NCBI GenBank assembly: GCA_028598975.1
Contig: JAQRMU010000078.1
Location: 1-45,128 of the forward strand
Length of the DNA stretch: 45,128 bases
Origin: Gammaproteobacteria bacterium
GTDB taxonomy: Bacteria; Pseudomonadota; Gammaproteobacteria; Nitrosococcales; Methylophagaceae
Direction of reading: 5' to 3'
Positions within the stretch are counted from its first letter, which is position 1; every line of letters begins with the position of its first letter. Both the position numbers and the translations under genes were made by a program. Below are positions 28,255 to 34,207 of the stretch, piece by piece. The notes beneath the pieces are model-generated. The model was not told where the DNA came from and made no database searches. It worked only from the letters and a program-made list of their open reading frames with translations.

Positions 28255-29556
28255 TTAGCTATATTTTACGTTGAATTTAGTATCTTGTCCTGTAACAAGT
28301 TCGATTGTTACCTGTCCGAAAATATTATAGTTGTTAACGTGATCTTGTCGAAAGGTATATGGAAAGTTAGAACGGCTCACTGATTGCCAATCTATAGAGT
28401 AAGGATCGTGCTCCACTTTTTGACCATTATGTTTACTAAAGACGCGAATATCATGAAGATAAAAATAGTTTAAATTCTCCTGCTGTTTTGGTAATAAATC
28501 TAACCTTGCTAGCTTTTTGGTCACATTCCAATAAGGGTTAAAAACAAGGTGGTTTACTTGAGAAAAAAAGCTAGGAGTAGGGCGACTCTTTCGACCGACA
28601 ATAACTTTCATCTTAAGTGCTTTATTACCATCATTTATAGCGTGTAATTGGTAATTTGCTGCATTGATAAGGAGATAGCGTTGGCCCAATTCTCGAGGCA
28701 TCCAACGATGGCGCTCTAATGTTACTTTTATTTGCTGTAATCGTTCTATTGCTGAAACATTCATCGCTCTGCGTGTTTCAGAACCAATAATGCCATCGAC
28801 TTTTAAGCCATATTTTCTTTGAAAATCTCGTACGGCTTGTTCTAAAAAAGGATCATAATGATGAGCTCGTTTTTTTGAACTGAGCACGAGATCCTTATTT
28901 TCAAAATGTAATCTATCTCTAATTAAAGGAATGTTTTTCTGCCGATCACCAGGGTGAATTAAGGGCATTGATGGTATAGCTAACCAGCCACCTCGACTCA
29001 CGTAGCTTTGGTAACGAGATAATGCTACCAACAGTTGATAATATTCAGCAGTATTGGGGGAAAGTGAATTTAGTTGCGTTTTAAGGTGGGGTTTTAATAA
29101 CGCATCGTGTAAAAACGCAACAGCATTAAACTTAGCCTGAGGAATAAACCAGTTAGGATCCGCACTATTTGCTTGCAAGCGACCAACAGCAATATCGTGA
29201 ATTAATGTTAATAAACCATCTGTTAATAAAATATCAAATTGTTGAGCAGAAAGATTATCGTGTAAGGGATTAAGTTGGGTGAGGGCTGATAGGTGATAAT
29301 GTTCTGGATTTAAACCATGTTTAGATGAGCCGGAAATAAAGTCAAGCGCATCATGGGCCTGGCTACTGAGTTGCTGATTATTCAGCCAAATAAATGTCGA
29401 TTGACTATACATCGTGCTTAGTGATGCTGTATCAAGCGTTATTGCATTATCAATTTGAGCTTGTTCGAGCCACTGTACTGTCATTGCCCGCGTTATGGAG
29501 CAAAAACTGCTAAGCAACAGCATGCTTATCCAAGCAAGTTTTCTAACGGTATCCAC
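28255..29556 (-). pseudogene. YcbB/LdtD-like L,D-transpeptidase, catalytic domain lost
   Basis: LdtD-type enzymes cross-link peptidoglycan through 3-3 bonds. The 433-residue product has a signal peptide (about residues 1-24), the YcbB scaffold domain, and a peptidoglycan-binding domain (DFQRKYGLKVDGIIGSETRR near 258). The beginning of the YkuD domain follows (VIVGRKSRPTPSF, FNPYWNVTKKLARLDLLPK). It follows the family down to FPYTFRQD, where relatives continue with the catalytic SxGCxR region. Here that region is absent and replaced by an unrelated 27-residue tail (GQVTIELVTGQDTKFNVKYS at the end). The active-site Cys is therefore missing. A 3' deletion or recombination is the likely cause, and the product, if made, could only bind wall material. 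Confidence 0.82.
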
Positions 29557-29614
29557 AATAGTGATGCTCTTTTAGATTCCTTTTGAGCATCATCACACTT
29601 TGGGCAATAGTGGG

Positions 29615-29666
29615 TCAAGCAGTGTGCGATCTAGATTTAATTAATAACCATAAAAAGAAGGGGCCA
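29615..29666. repeat. 52-bp direct repeat, copy A (displaced btuC 3' end)
   Basis: Identical over 52 bases to 31552-31603. On the minus strand it carries the last 16 codons and the stop of btuC, but here it is separated from the rest of that gene by phoA. Homology ends sharply on both sides. Confidence 0.95.
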
Positions 29667-29734
29667 TCCTTTATTCCCGAATATGCGGTAGTCTGACACC
29701 CTGTTAAAGGTAAATTAAGTTTATGCCTATCGTG

Positions 29735-31276
29735 TTATTTAAGCTGTAGAGCATGTTTCATTACATGGTAAATGTAATTTTGTTCATAAACGCCCGTGAA
29801 TAAATGTGCCCAAGGGCCCGCTGCGAAAATAGCCACATCTTCCCCACTATGTGTTTCCGAACTGAGTGGTATCAAGCTTTCATGTACATGATCTCGGTGT
29901 TCAGTATCAACCATCGTTAAGTCTGAACGATGGGGAGCAACTTTACAGCTAGGTGAAAAGCATTTTGTTGTATGCTCAGGCAAGCGTTTACCACCATTAG
30001 CATAACTTAATGTGGTATAAGGCAAACCATCTTTAGCCAAAGCATATTCCGACACTGCATTATCTTGCACAGGGTGATTTGATTTTACTTTACCTAAAAT
30101 AGGGTTACCTCGTTTTGGGTAACCTGCCATCGTAAAGACGTGGCTATGATCAGCGGTAACAATCAGCAGTGTATCGTCTAAATTGACCATTTCAAGTATC
30201 CGCTTGACCGTATTATCTAAAGCAATTGTGTCATTTAAAGCCAGATGCGGATTCGCAGCATGATGACCATGATCAATCCGGCCTGCTTCAACCATCAGAA
30301 AAAAACCTGTATTACTTTTTTGCAATATCTGGATTGCTTTATCCGTCATTTCAGCTAAGGTTGGTTCACCTGCGCCATCAAGCGGGCGATCAACATGATA
30401 CCGCATATGACTGGGCTCAAATAAGCCTAGTAATTTGTCAGTAGTCACCGGATTAATTTGTTCAAACTGCTTGGCATTCCAAACATATTGACCACTGGCA
30501 TATTTATGTTGCCATTCATTGATAAGGTTTCTGCCATCTTCACGAATACCGGTAGCTAATTGAGGATATTCAGGATCATTTTCCTCTAAAGGCAAAAAAT
30601 TGCGCCGCCCACCACCTAACACAACTTCAATACCATCACCGTGATTGAAATTAACCATTTGACTGGCAATATCTTCACAGCCCTGTTTTTGTTCGACCGA
30701 GGGGATTTTACTATCGGCTTCCCAGTCACGTTCTGGAGCATGAGCATAAGTTGCCGCTGGCGTGGCATGTGTGATGCGGGCAGTACTCACAATACCTGTC
30801 GCATAGCCAAGATCTTCCATTTGTTCTAGCAAGGTTTCAGTGCCATTCTCTTTACTACTTAAACAGTTCGAGCGAATAGCATGTTGATTAACCGAAATAA
30901 CACCTGCACGCGTTTTGATGCCCGTCATCATCGCTGTCATCGTGCCTGCCGAATCAGGAACTTGTTGATCAACATTGTATGTTTTAGCTAGTGCAACATA
31001 AGGCAATTGTTCAAACGTCAGTTTATTTTCTTCCCCCATCTGCCCCATCTTTTGCCCTTGAAAGATTCGAGTGGCAGTGATGGTAGAAATACTCATGCCG
31101 TCACCTACCAGCAAGATCACATTTTTAGCTTGATTAGTGTTGACCGTGTTAGCTAGCGCTTGTTGCAGTGCTTGTTGGCCATCTTGATACCATTGTTTAG
31201 GTGATTCAGCTTGTACTACGGCACATGAAAACAAGCTTAGTGCTAATAAAAAACTTCGTAGCTTATTCATTTTCAT
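29735..31276 (-). CDS. phoA: Alkaline phosphatase PhoA-like
   Basis: A periplasmic metal-dependent phosphomonoesterase that releases phosphate from organic esters. The 513-residue product has a signal peptide (cleavage near AVVQAES), ILLVGDGMS near residue 54 and the nucleophile Ser109 in VPDSAGT. The zinc/magnesium ligands are in EAGRIDHGHHAANP near 330 and TADHSHVF near 376, and the late His in ETHSGEDV near 481. Pho-box-like sites in the 275-base upstream region (31277-31551) are not convincing, although CTGTAACA occurs there. The gene is flanked by the 52-bp direct repeat, so it may have been acquired as a unit at the end of btuC. Confidence 0.93.
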   Translation of the reverse strand: MKMNKLRSFLLALSLFSCAVVQAESPKQWYQDGQQALQQALANTVNTNQAKNVILLVGDGMSISTITATRIFQGQKMGQMGEENKLTFEQLPYVALAKTYNVDQQVPDSAGTMTAMMTGIKTRAGVISVNQHAIRSNCLSSKENGTETLLEQMEDLGYATGIVSTARITHATPAATYAHAPERDWEADSKIPSVEQKQGCEDIASQMVNFNHGDGIEVVLGGGRRNFLPLEENDPEYPQLATGIREDGRNLINEWQHKYASGQYVWNAKQFEQINPVTTDKLLGLFEPSHMRYHVDRPLDGAGEPTLAEMTDKAIQILQKSNTGFFLMVEAGRIDHGHHAANPHLALNDTIALDNTVKRILEMVNLDDTLLIVTADHSHVFTMAGYPKRGNPILGKVKSNHPVQDNAVSEYALAKDGLPYTTLSYANGGKRLPEHTTKCFSPSCKVAPHRSDLTMVDTEHRDHVHESLIPLSSETHSGEDVAIFAAGPWAHLFTGVYEQNYIYHVMKHALQLK

Positions 31277-31551
31277 AACGTAATAACCTGATTAGATACC
31301 TGTGTTTAACAAGAAGTAGTATATTAAAAATATATATAATTTTTGTTACAGTCTATTGGTATAACATGCATGGGTCAGGGAGAACGCATACTAACCTCTC
31401 AGCCCAAACACAAGCTGACTTCTCATTGTATCACTTCATCCAGCTTGTTTTAACTTACCCCGCGTACTGTTTTTTGAGGATGCAATCGTGCTAAATTGAG
31501 TGCAAAACGCCTAATTACAGCCACGTTCTCCGCACCATCACCTTATTGCAT

Positions 31552-31603
31552 TCAAGCAGTGTGCGATCTAGATTTAATTAATAACCATAAAAAGAAGGGG
31601 CCA
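31552..31603. repeat. 52-bp direct repeat, copy B (3' end of intact btuC)
   Basis: The other copy of the repeat at 29615-29666. It forms the last 16 codons and stop of the btuC-like gene. The two copies are 1937 bp apart, start to start, and enclose phoA. Confidence 0.95.
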
Positions 31604-32514
31604 CCCAGTAAGGTGGTGATAACGCCAACAGGAATTTCAGCGGGTGCAATGATAAGCCGTGATATGGTGTCACAGACAATTAAAAAAGACCCACCAAAAA
31701 GTAGGCTGGCAGGCGTTAGCCAGCGGTGATCACTGCCAATTAATAGACGGCAAATATGAGGAACCATCATGCCGACAAAGCCAATAGGACCACATAAAGC
31801 GACGATAGCACCGACACACAATGAGGTGACAAAAAAGAGTGTATAGCGAATATATTGAACCGATACACCGCGGCTGAGGGCGATATCATCACCTGCCATT
31901 AAAAGGTTGAGCTCACGTCGTAACCATAATATAACCGCAGTACAAAGCGCCACAAAAGGCAGTAATTGTAAAATATCACGATAACCGACTGTCGTTAAAC
32001 TACCCATTAACCAACGTAGAATTTGGAATGAATCTGTTAGATCGCTAAGGTATTGGGTGAATAGAATAAGACTGGAAAAGAAGAAGCTAATCGCAACACC
32101 GGTTAACAGCAATGTCTCAGGAGAGAAACCACTTTGATAGCGACTAATGCTGTAGACAAAACTAATGGCGATTAAGGAACCTAAAAATGCAGCAAAGGTG
32201 CCACCATCAAAACCGAACAGGGTAAAACTAAAACCAAGGTAAACATAAATGGCGGCACCTAGTGAGCCACCGCTAGCAACTCCGAGAGTGAAAGGGGTTG
32301 CAAGTGGGTTATGGAACATTGCTTGAAACACCATGCCACATAAGGCTAAACCTGCGCCTGCGATAAAAGCGAACAAGACTCTAGGGATGCGTAATTGAGT
32401 CAAAATATGATGCTGAATATCAGCATTACCAATTGATAAGCCAAGATAAGGGCTCGCCACTAAGATAAGTAGTGTTGCTAGGGCAATGAGGATTAATGTA
32501 TTTCTTGCTGTCAT
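31552..32514 (-). CDS. btuC: FecCD/BtuC-type ABC importer permease
   Basis: A 320-residue permease with about ten membrane helices, the inner-membrane channel for cobalamin, haem or ferric siderophores. Family motifs are RIPRVLFAFIAGAGLALCG near residue 43, FHNPLATPFTLGVASGGSLG near 67 and CGPIGFVGMMVPHICRLLIG near 240. The stop lies in copy B of the 52-bp repeat. It overlaps the ATPase gene by four bases. The symbol follows the operon's resemblance to BtuCDF; a siderophore or haem substrate is equally possible from sequence. Confidence 0.85.
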   Translation of the reverse strand: MTARNTLILIALATLLILVASPYLGLSIGNADIQHHILTQLRIPRVLFAFIAGAGLALCGMVFQAMFHNPLATPFTLGVASGGSLGAAIYVYLGFSFTLFGFDGGTFAAFLGSLIAISFVYSISRYQSGFSPETLLLTGVAISFFFSSLILFTQYLSDLTDSFQILRWLMGSLTTVGYRDILQLLPFVALCTAVILWLRRELNLLMAGDDIALSRGVSVQYIRYTLFFVTSLCVGAIVALCGPIGFVGMMVPHICRLLIGSDHRWLTPASLLFGGSFLIVCDTISRLIIAPAEIPVGVITTLLGGPFFLWLLIKSRSHTA

Positions 32515-33299
32515 TGTGTCATCTCACTGGGCAAAGCAACTAAGGCCCCAGTCTGCGGGTGGGTGGCAAAGACAAATTGTTGGTCATAAAGTGCGTGTAA
32601 ATGAGACGCTTGTAATAATTCTGATGACGGACCATGCCAAAGTACTTTTCCGTGTTTAAGTGCCAAAATATGATGACTGTGTTGTGCGGCATGATTCAAA
32701 TCATGACTTACTTCAATAATACTAATGCCATGGTGTTGATTGAGGTTTTGAATAAGTTGATGCACTTCAACTTGATGATGAGGATCGAGAAAACTCGTTG
32801 GTTCATCTAAAAGTAATAAGGGCGATTGTTGACATACTGCTGCGGCAATCATAACGCGTTGTGCCTCACCACCACTTAATGTCGTCATCTGGCGATAAAG
32901 AAAGTCTTCCGTATTGGTAATGTTTATCGCGTGCTCTAGTGCATTTTGATCTTCTTTTGACCAGTCAGAAAAAGCAAAATGGTGGGCATAGCGAGCCATC
33001 TTGATGAAGTCGATAACACTAAAGTTAAGTTGATGACCATGTGCTTGAGGCACATAACTTATCTGACGAGCCAGTTCTTTTTGAGACAAGGATGCTAAGG
33101 GCTGTTGATTTAGCTTTATCTCACCAGCGCTTGAACTCACAATACCCATTAATACTTTTAACAGTGTACTTTTACCCGCACCATTAGGGCCTAAAACACA
33201 GAGGTAATCCCCCTGTTGAAATTGAACACTAATTGAAGATAAAAGAGATTTGTTCCCTATCTCAACAGAGAGTTCTTGGACATCTAATAATAGTGTCAT
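32511..33299 (-). CDS. btuD: ABC importer ATPase, BtuD/FecE type
   Basis: A 262-residue ATPase with Walker A GPNGAGKST near residue 38, the Q-loop in SYVPQAHG, signature LSGGEAQRVMIA near 141 and Walker B LLLLDEPTSFLDP near 160. The H-loop is EVSHDLNHAA. It is translationally coupled to the permease downstream and the binding protein upstream by four-base overlaps. Confidence 0.9.
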   Translation of the reverse strand: MTLLLDVQELSVEIGNKSLLSSISVQFQQGDYLCVLGPNGAGKSTLLKVLMGIVSSSAGEIKLNQQPLASLSQKELARQISYVPQAHGHQLNFSVIDFIKMARYAHHFAFSDWSKEDQNALEHAINITNTEDFLYRQMTTLSGGEAQRVMIAAAVCQQSPLLLLDEPTSFLDPHHQVEVHQLIQNLNQHHGISIIEVSHDLNHAAQHSHHILALKHGKVLWHGPSSELLQASHLHALYDQQFVFATHPQTGALVALPSEMTQ

Positions 33300-34207
33300 G
33301 GTGAGGGTTCATCCCACTCTAACTCAGGGTGAATTAACCGAGCCATTTTGTTTAAAAGTTTGAAAATTCTTGGCCCCGGAATCGTGGCATAGTTTTCTTC
33401 AATAATATGAAAGCGATTATCTTTGATAGCGTTCACATGGACGAGAGATTGCCATTGTCGTTTTACCTGAGAAAGATCGGCACCGTGATCAGATGCTTCA
33501 GGGAAAATATCAAGAATCACATCAGGGTTAAGCTGCATAATGCCTTCGATAGATAATGAGGGTACTTTTAAATGTTTACCTTGATAGGCATTCTGCCCAC
33601 CGGCAAGAAGAATAAGATCATTATAAAAATCATGTTGGCCTGCGATATAGATATTTTTCACATGCTCACTCCCCATACTGTGTCCCATTGTCACCATTAC
33701 TTTAGGGCGAGTGAGGGCACCTACTTTATCTGTAACATAGCTTATTTGTTGATTAATATGGGCTAATAAGGTGTGCGCTTGCTGTTGGTGCTGAGTGACA
33801 TCACCAATGATTTTAATACTGTCTTTTATGTCGGATAAGCTGGTGGTATGAACCGTTAGCGTGGGAATGTTAAGTTGCTGAAGTTGATCGACGGTGTACT
33901 GTCGCGTTGCACCTAAAATAACTAAGTCAGGTTGTAGGGCGACAATCGCTTCAATGTTCGGATCAATGAATCCACCGACTTTAGGCAAACTAGTTACCTT
34001 GGCAGGGTAGTCACAATAACGAGTAACAGCGACAACCTCGTTATCAAGCCCTAAAGCAAAGGCAATTTCAGTGATGCTAGGTGAAAGTGTAATAATACGT
34101 TGTGGTGTTACAGATGGTGTTTTTTCAGTCATCGGTGCTTTATTTAGACCAAAGAGTGCCACTAAAAAAATAAGCAAAAATAAGATGAGTGGCCAAAACT
34201 GACGCAT
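33296..34207 (-). CDS. btuF: Periplasmic binding protein, BtuF/siderophore type
   Basis: A 303-residue class III substrate-binding protein with an uncleaved-looking N-terminal hydrophobic segment (residues 4-21) and no lipobox. RIITLSPSITEIAFALGL near residue 38, VTRYCDYPAKVTSLPKVGG near 60 and DPNIEAIVALQPDLVILG near 82 are typical of BtuF and related proteins. It is the first gene of the btuF-btuD-btuC operon. I see no cobalamin riboswitch between it and the divergent hpt gene, so B12 specificity is unproven. Confidence 0.85.
   Translation of the reverse strand: MRQFWPLILFLLIFLVALFGLNKAPMTEKTPSVTPQRIITLSPSITEIAFALGLDNEVVAVTRYCDYPAKVTSLPKVGGFIDPNIEAIVALQPDLVILGATRQYTVDQLQQLNIPTLTVHTTSLSDIKDSIKIIGDVTQHQQQAHTLLAHINQQISYVTDKVGALTRPKVMVTMGHSMGSEHVKNIYIAGQHDFYNDLILLAGGQNAYQGKHLKVPSLSIEGIMQLNPDVILDIFPEASDHGADLSQVKRQWQSLVHVNAIKDNRFHIIEENYATIPGPRIFKLLNKMARLIHPELEWDEPSP

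What the first reader, a model, noticed from the sequence alone, without database searches (positions are those of the whole stretch)
29615..31603. phoA enclosed by a perfect 52-bp direct repeat of the btuC 3' end
The last 16 codons and stop of btuC are duplicated on the far side of phoA with no mismatch. A gene-end duplication is the typical scar of site-specific integration or of a replication-based capture, but no integrase is present. Recombination between the copies would excise phoA as a 1937-bp circle or delete it.
Basis: seen in the sequence. Interest (0 to 1): 0.6.

Follow-up and report, generated by a model that had tools for sequence, protein, structure and literature searches.

The report
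Captured phoA flanked by 52-bp duplication
An alkaline phosphatase gene taken up from another bacterium sits just behind a vitamin B12 transport gene, and its insertion duplicated 52 bases of that gene's end; this resembles a known but little-studied kind of insertion scar and is not a new kind of element.

Summary
29615-29666 and 31552-31603 are identical over 52 bp (16 codons, the stop and one base of btuC), start-to-start 1937 bp, the only two copies in the held genome. It is very unlikely to be a simple assembly fold: the window has no N, and two scaffold gaps elsewhere suggest a 121-bp k-mer assembly.

The nearest relative, G028, has the empty site with one copy. In 25 of 25 relatives with btuC and the L,D-transpeptidase gene (ldt) matched on one contig, 49-248 bp separate the matches. 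PhoA groups with a distant gammaproteobacterium, not with 15 same-family PhoAs, so it was acquired horizontally.

Both copies are identical, while all 19 relatives compared differ at 6 or more of 52 positions, so the duplication was probably made in this lineage. Best reading: recent, homology-poor capture of foreign DNA with a long target duplication, the pattern described in Helicobacter pylori (Nobusato 2000, known here through citing papers). Integrase-type integration is not supported. New member of a known kind; interest modest.

The parts
29615..29666 (-). Repeat copy R1: distal copy of the btuC 3' end, joined to the original leader of the ldt gene
31552..31603 (-). Repeat copy R2: btuC 3' end in place, last 16 codons plus stop plus one base
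29667..31551 (.). 1885-bp insert absent from relatives at this site
   Evidence: empty site in G028; 25 of 25 other genomes with btuC and ldt matched on one contig have a match-to-match gap of 49-248 bp
29735..31276 (-). phoA, 513-aa alkaline phosphatase, intact ORF, horizontally acquired
   Evidence: Pfam PF00245 E 2.5e-138; tree with BB4 100/100, outside 15 same-family PhoAs
31376..31551 (-). 3' relic of an ISAs1-family insertion sequence: transposase C-terminal piece (31456-31542) next to R2, then right terminal inverted repeat TTAGTATGCGTTCTCCCTG (31376-31394)
   Evidence: tblastn 83% and 67% to plasmid ISAs1-type sequences; 71% DNA identity over 115 bp; terminal repeats of two related elements
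29667..29734 (.). 68-bp 3' end of the insert between phoA stop and R1, origin unknown
   Evidence: only its own locus matches at low E in the family; plasmid search gives one 24-base match, E 0.6
31552..32514 (-). btuC, B12/siderophore-type ABC permease, left intact
32511..33299 (-). btuD-like ATPase
33296..34207 (-). btuF-like binding protein
28255..29556 (-). ldt, L,D-transpeptidase gene truncated by a separate ~1.85-kb deletion; ancestral downstream neighbour of btuC

Best explanation
A foreign DNA piece of 1885 bp, carrying phoA and the dead 3' end of an ISAs1-family element, was captured between btuC and the ldt gene in this lineage. SHOWN: the site is empty in relatives, PhoA is foreign to the family, the 52 bp that are single in the empty site now flank the insert on both sides, and both neighbours' borders (btuC stop and ldt leader) are kept. 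INFERRED: the duplication was made in place from the resident sequence. The likely route is homology-poor capture: either a break or nick pair staggered by 52 nt with fill-in of both ends, or a polymerase that copied past the btuC end, switched to foreign template, and returned 52 nt upstream. This is the pattern called 'insertion with long target duplication'. phoA then came to lie behind btuC, probably with its own promoter (not tested). Recombination between the copies could restore the empty site (inferred).
For: Exact 52-bp repeat. Single-copy empty site in G028, where window 29562-29666 and 31552-31660 match overlapping stretches of one contig. 25 of 25 other genomes with both genes matched on one contig have a 49-248 bp gap. 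phoA in 16 of 57 family genomes including this one, not found at btuC in the other 15. PhoA sister to BB4 at 71% identity, 100/100 support. R1 = R2 exactly, while the btuC end differs from R at 6 to 43 of 52 positions in 19 of 19 relatives, ungapped, so an imported copy from any sampled species would show differences. The IS relic has frame-breaking changes but the repeats have none, so the IS was probably dead before capture.
Against: No donor locus was found, so junction microhomology cannot be examined. R1 identity could also be kept by gene conversion. One edge of the duplication falls exactly on the last base of the btuC stop codon, which random break points give only now and then and which is typical of integrase sites in gene ends (recalled). 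Only one insertion of this type is known here; no second such scar turned up in the ~20% of the genome sampled.
Confidence: 0.6

Rival explanations
1. Single crossover (Campbell-type) integration of a small circle that already carried phoA and 52 bp of a btuC end from the same or a near-identical strain. RecA recombination in the 52 bp gives the flanking repeats.
For: Yields exactly this structure and perfect identity if the circle came from a conspecific. 52 bp exceeds the ~30-bp RecA threshold quoted in PMC2884548 (passages).
Against: Needs an earlier event that linked phoA to the btuC end. No plasmid phoA at 60% identity or more, no phage phoA at 60% or more, and no exact match to 39 bases of the repeat in viral contigs.
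Confidence: 0.15
2. Site-specific integration of a tiny non-autonomous element at the btuC 3' end by an integrase acting in trans; the repeats are attL and attR.
For: Gene-3'-end duplication that restores btuC, with one repeat edge at the last base of the stop codon.
Against: No recombinase in phoA, ldt, btuCDF or 20 neighbours. No other element at this site in 25 relatives with a matched btuC-ldt pair. Perfect match to the resident btuC although relatives differ at 6 or more of 52 positions. Integrases elsewhere in the genome were not searched.
Confidence: 0.12
3. Transposition driven by the ISAs1-family element, for example a composite transposon carrying phoA.
For: An ISAs1-family right end lies immediately upstream of phoA, and other ISAs1 pieces lie on C12, C47 and C48 of the same genome.
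Against: The IS is broken at the R2 junction and frame-damaged. The other border of the insert has no convincing IS end: a CAGGG...GCAT motif at 29703 (minus) has 12 bases between its halves against 5 and 7 in related elements, and such motifs occur 6 times in the window. ISAs1 target duplications are 8-10 bp (recalled), not 52.
Confidence: 0.06
4. Assembly artefact: the second copy or the insert is a misjoin.
For: Draft genome of 94 contigs; other contigs contain 100-N joins, 2 of the 8 seen flanked by an identical 121 bp.
Against: No N in the 45,128-bp window. The 121-bp overlaps suggest k=121, so a 52-bp repeat is shorter than k and each junction needs reads through it. Both outer flanks match the empty site exactly where expected.
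Confidence: 0.04

Closest known systems
Insertion with long target duplication (Nobusato et al. 2000, Gene 259:99; H. pylori), seen only through citing papers PMC1643837, PMC3031569, PMC3874152, PMC3154945
   Same: Comparison of related genomes shows a gene present in one and absent in the other, with a long direct repeat of the target flanking the insert and no classical mobile element; PMC3874152 gives target duplications 'in the order of 100 bp'.
   Different: Cases cited there are restriction-modification genes, mostly in H. pylori; here a metabolic gene (phoA) with a dead IS fragment, in a different bacterial class, 52 bp.
Homology-facilitated illegitimate recombination and other illegitimate capture of foreign DNA (discussed in PMC2884548 and cited in PMC3784515; passages read)
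   Same: Non-homologous foreign DNA joined into a chromosome without transposase or integrase.
   Different: The discussed route uses one homologous anchor; here no homologous arm beyond the 52 bp is evident and target sequence is duplicated.
Integrase-type islands in gene 3' ends (recalled)
   Same: Duplicated gene 3' end flanks the insert; gene stays intact.
   Different: No integrase, 1.9 kb only, no second element at this site, repeat identical to resident sequence.
ISAs1-family insertion sequences
   Same: Relic of transposase C-terminus and right terminal repeat inside the insert.
   Different: Truncated and frame-damaged; the insert's outer borders are not IS ends.

Membership tests
Insertion with long target duplication | Related genome has the empty site with a single copy of the repeated sequence | tested here: met
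   G028 C226 single copy
Insertion with long target duplication | Direct repeat far longer than a transposon target duplication, matching the target | tested here: met
   52 bp exact
Insertion with long target duplication | No transposon or integrase borders at the insert ends | tested here: met
   IS relic is internal and truncated; no recombinase found in the proteins scanned
Insertion with long target duplication | Usual cargo in the cited cases: restriction-modification genes (a tendency, not treated here as defining) | tested here: not met
   cargo is phoA
Integrase-type integrative element | Integrase gene in the element | tested here: not met
   insert contains phoA and an IS relic only
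Integrase-type integrative element | Same attachment site used by other elements | tested here: not met
   25 of 25 relatives with a same-contig btuC-ldt pair are empty there
Integrase-type integrative element | Recombinase elsewhere in the genome acting in trans | not tested
ISAs1-family transposon / composite transposon | Both terminal repeats at the insert borders and 8-10 bp target duplication (size recalled) | tested here: not met
   one right end, internal; repeat is 52 bp
ISAs1 family (for the relic) | Transposase similarity | tested here: met
   (83%, 67%; second hit annotated ISAs1 family transposase); but no Pfam match to the 28- and 34-aa pieces, the NCBIfam model did not list this place, and plasmid DNA search found nothing

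The most novel reading that the evidence does not exclude
The btuC 3' end is the target of an undescribed integrase-less or trans-mobilised cassette mechanism that moves single metabolic genes such as phoA with ~50-bp gene-end duplications, and phoA still excises as a 1937-bp circle, giving reversible phosphatase gain.
Probability: 0.06. Interest if true: 0.65.

Novelty: new member of a known kind. Interest (0 to 1): 0.3.

Why it matters
It is a clean, recent example, with an empty-site comparison, of a single metabolic gene acquired without a recognisable mobile element, and it extends the long-target-duplication pattern beyond the restriction-modification genes for which it is cited. It gives defined junctions and a predicted deletion product that can be tested. 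It does not reveal a new system.

Tried and rejected
Integrase att site: rejected as lead reading for want of an integrase, a hotspot, or any divergence between copies. ISAs1 transposition: the relic is internal, truncated and decayed. I suspected that the 68-bp tail (CAGGG...GCAT, 29703 minus) might be the IS left end; spacing does not fit related elements and the motif is common in the window, so left as unexplained. Ancestral phoA lost in relatives: rejected by the tree and by the fresh repeat. Close donor: none found. Best is BB4, 72% protein identity, with DNA similarity confined to the coding region; class search and plasmid and phage searches gave nothing nearer. Match of the 275 bp upstream of phoA in 59 genomes: own only. 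Paper searches listed nothing on phoA capture with direct repeats.

Dropped or faulty: one search's R, 374-bp and leader comparisons were off by one base and are replaced; the fourfold-site figures stand. L036 (25% identity) was left out of the tree, which used 13 of the 14 loci. The family tables hold 57 genomes, several incomplete; genomes with btuC and ldt on different contigs (e.g. G001, G007) could not be scored for adjacency. In one search seven relatives with shorter or shifted btuC ends (G010, G014, G027, G008, G013, G017, G023) show large ungapped differences that are partly misalignment.

Full report
OBSERVATION. The window is one whole contig (G000:C76, 45,128 bp) of a 1.88-Mb draft genome in 94 contigs. 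A perfect 52-bp direct repeat lies at 29615-29666 and 31552-31603, 1937 bp apart. The right copy is the end of btuC (minus strand): 16 codons, the stop and one base. About 4e-22 such repeats are expected by chance. An 81-bp probe finds only these two places in the genome. In 384,398 bp sampled, the window included, the other exact direct repeats of 24 bp or more are one 27-mer and two 121-bp repeats. Both 121-bp repeats flank a 100-N gap, so they are scaffold joins and suggest assembly at k=121. The window has no N. A 52-bp repeat is shorter than that k, so both junctions should be supported by reads. This is an inference; reads were not available.

WHAT WAS THERE BEFORE. In G028, the nearest relative by this locus (btuC protein 96-97%), one contig runs from the btuC end straight into the ldt leader with a single copy of the 52 bp. 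Its copy differs from R at 6 of 52 bases; the 374 bp of btuC before it differ at 38, and the 58-bp leader at 2. Among 57 family genomes, btuC is found in 53 and ldt in 34 (this genome included). In the 25 other genomes with both matched on one contig, 49-248 bp separate the matches, too little for phoA. phoA itself occurs in 16 of 57 including this one. In the other 15 it is on a different contig from btuC (13) or more than 400 kb away (2).

WHAT CAME IN. The insert is 1885 bp (29667-31551). It holds an intact phoA (PF00245, E 2.5e-138). In a 37-row tree PhoA pairs with that of 'Gammaproteobacteria bacterium isolate BB4' (100/100; 71% identity) and then with L032 (100/99), away from all 15 same-family PhoAs. 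It is therefore a horizontal acquisition from an unsampled donor. GC of phoA, 42.3%, is not unusual for the window, 40.4%. Between R2 and phoA lies a relic of an ISAs1-family element: a reading frame matching a transposase C-terminus (83% to an unannotated Yersinia ruckeri plasmid stretch, 67% to an annotated ISAs1 family transposase), 71% DNA identity over 115 bp to the former, and a right end TTAGTATGCGTTCTCCCTG like those of the two related elements. Against this: Pfam gives no match to the short pieces, the NCBIfam ISAs1 model lists three other places in this genome but not this one, and a plasmid DNA search found nothing. The relic is cut at the R2 junction and frame-damaged. The pattern of its right end occurs once, here, in 59 genomes. 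The last 68 bp of the insert have no convincing relative.

MECHANISM. The two copies are identical, while in 19 of 19 relatives the btuC end differs at 6 or more of 52 positions. A copy carried in from another sampled species would show differences, so the second copy was most likely made from the resident sequence, recently. Fourfold sites of btuC and ldt against G028 differ at 33%. Had the repeat been as old as that split, several changes between R1 and R2 would be expected: about 6 by the R-region difference itself, so a chance of roughly exp(-6) of none, unless gene conversion kept them alike. The IS relic was probably dead before capture, and the insert's borders are not IS ends, so the IS is a passenger. 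This leaves capture of foreign DNA with a 52-bp target duplication, by a wide-stagger break filled in at both ends or by template switching. The exact enzyme path cannot be told. A single crossover with a conspecific circle gives the same product and is the main rival. An integrase acting in trans is less likely; the one feature in its favour is that the repeat ends exactly at the stop codon.

COMPARISON. The pattern is that of 'insertion with long target duplication' (Nobusato et al. 2000). I did not see that paper, only passages in PMC1643837, PMC3031569, PMC3154945 and PMC3874152, the last giving duplications in the order of 100 bp. Illegitimate recombination as a common source of bacterial gene-content variation, with 10-18% of variable segments flanked by repeats mostly under 30 bp, is in PMC2884548 (passages). 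The present case has different cargo from the cited restriction-modification genes but is the same kind of event.

NEIGHBOURHOOD. The ancestral order btuC-ldt-DUF882-like gene-small opposite ORF-trhO is kept in many relatives (the names DUF882 and trhO are mine, recalled). In the window a deletion of about 1.85 kb between 28329 and 28341 has removed the ldt C-terminus and the next two genes, and Pfam finds only the first part of the YkuD domain. In G027 btuC is followed directly by trhO. This interval therefore gains and loses DNA repeatedly in the genus; a link between the deletion and the phoA capture is not shown.

VERDICT. Real, recent, horizontally acquired, ordinary in kind, with an unusually clear scar.

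Noticed in passing
window 28255-29556 and junction 28329-28341: The L,D-transpeptidase gene lacks its C-terminal catalytic part through a ~1.85-kb deletion that also removed a DUF882-like gene and a small ORF present in G028; probably a pseudogene.
   Followed up: partly
interval between btuC and trhO in L055-L074: This interval differs widely in the genus: ldt complete, ldt missing (G025), or everything missing (G027). It looks like a small zone of gene loss and gain.
   Followed up: partly
G000:C12 start (L087), C48 start (L089), C47:2156-2263 (L088): Three further ISAs1-family fragments in the same genome, two at contig starts; C47 has its own right-end-like sequence and differs from the window relic.
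   Followed up: partly
L129:4053-4394 and L087:1501-1842: 100-N scaffold gaps flanked by identical 121-bp sequence on both sides, so real overlaps were left as duplicated ends; sequence there is falsely duplicated.
   Followed up: yes
window 31370-31380: The bases at and after the IS right end (TGACCCA) also occur at the btuC stop/ldt leader (TGACCCA); a short coincidence or a trace of the capture, not resolved.
   Followed up: no
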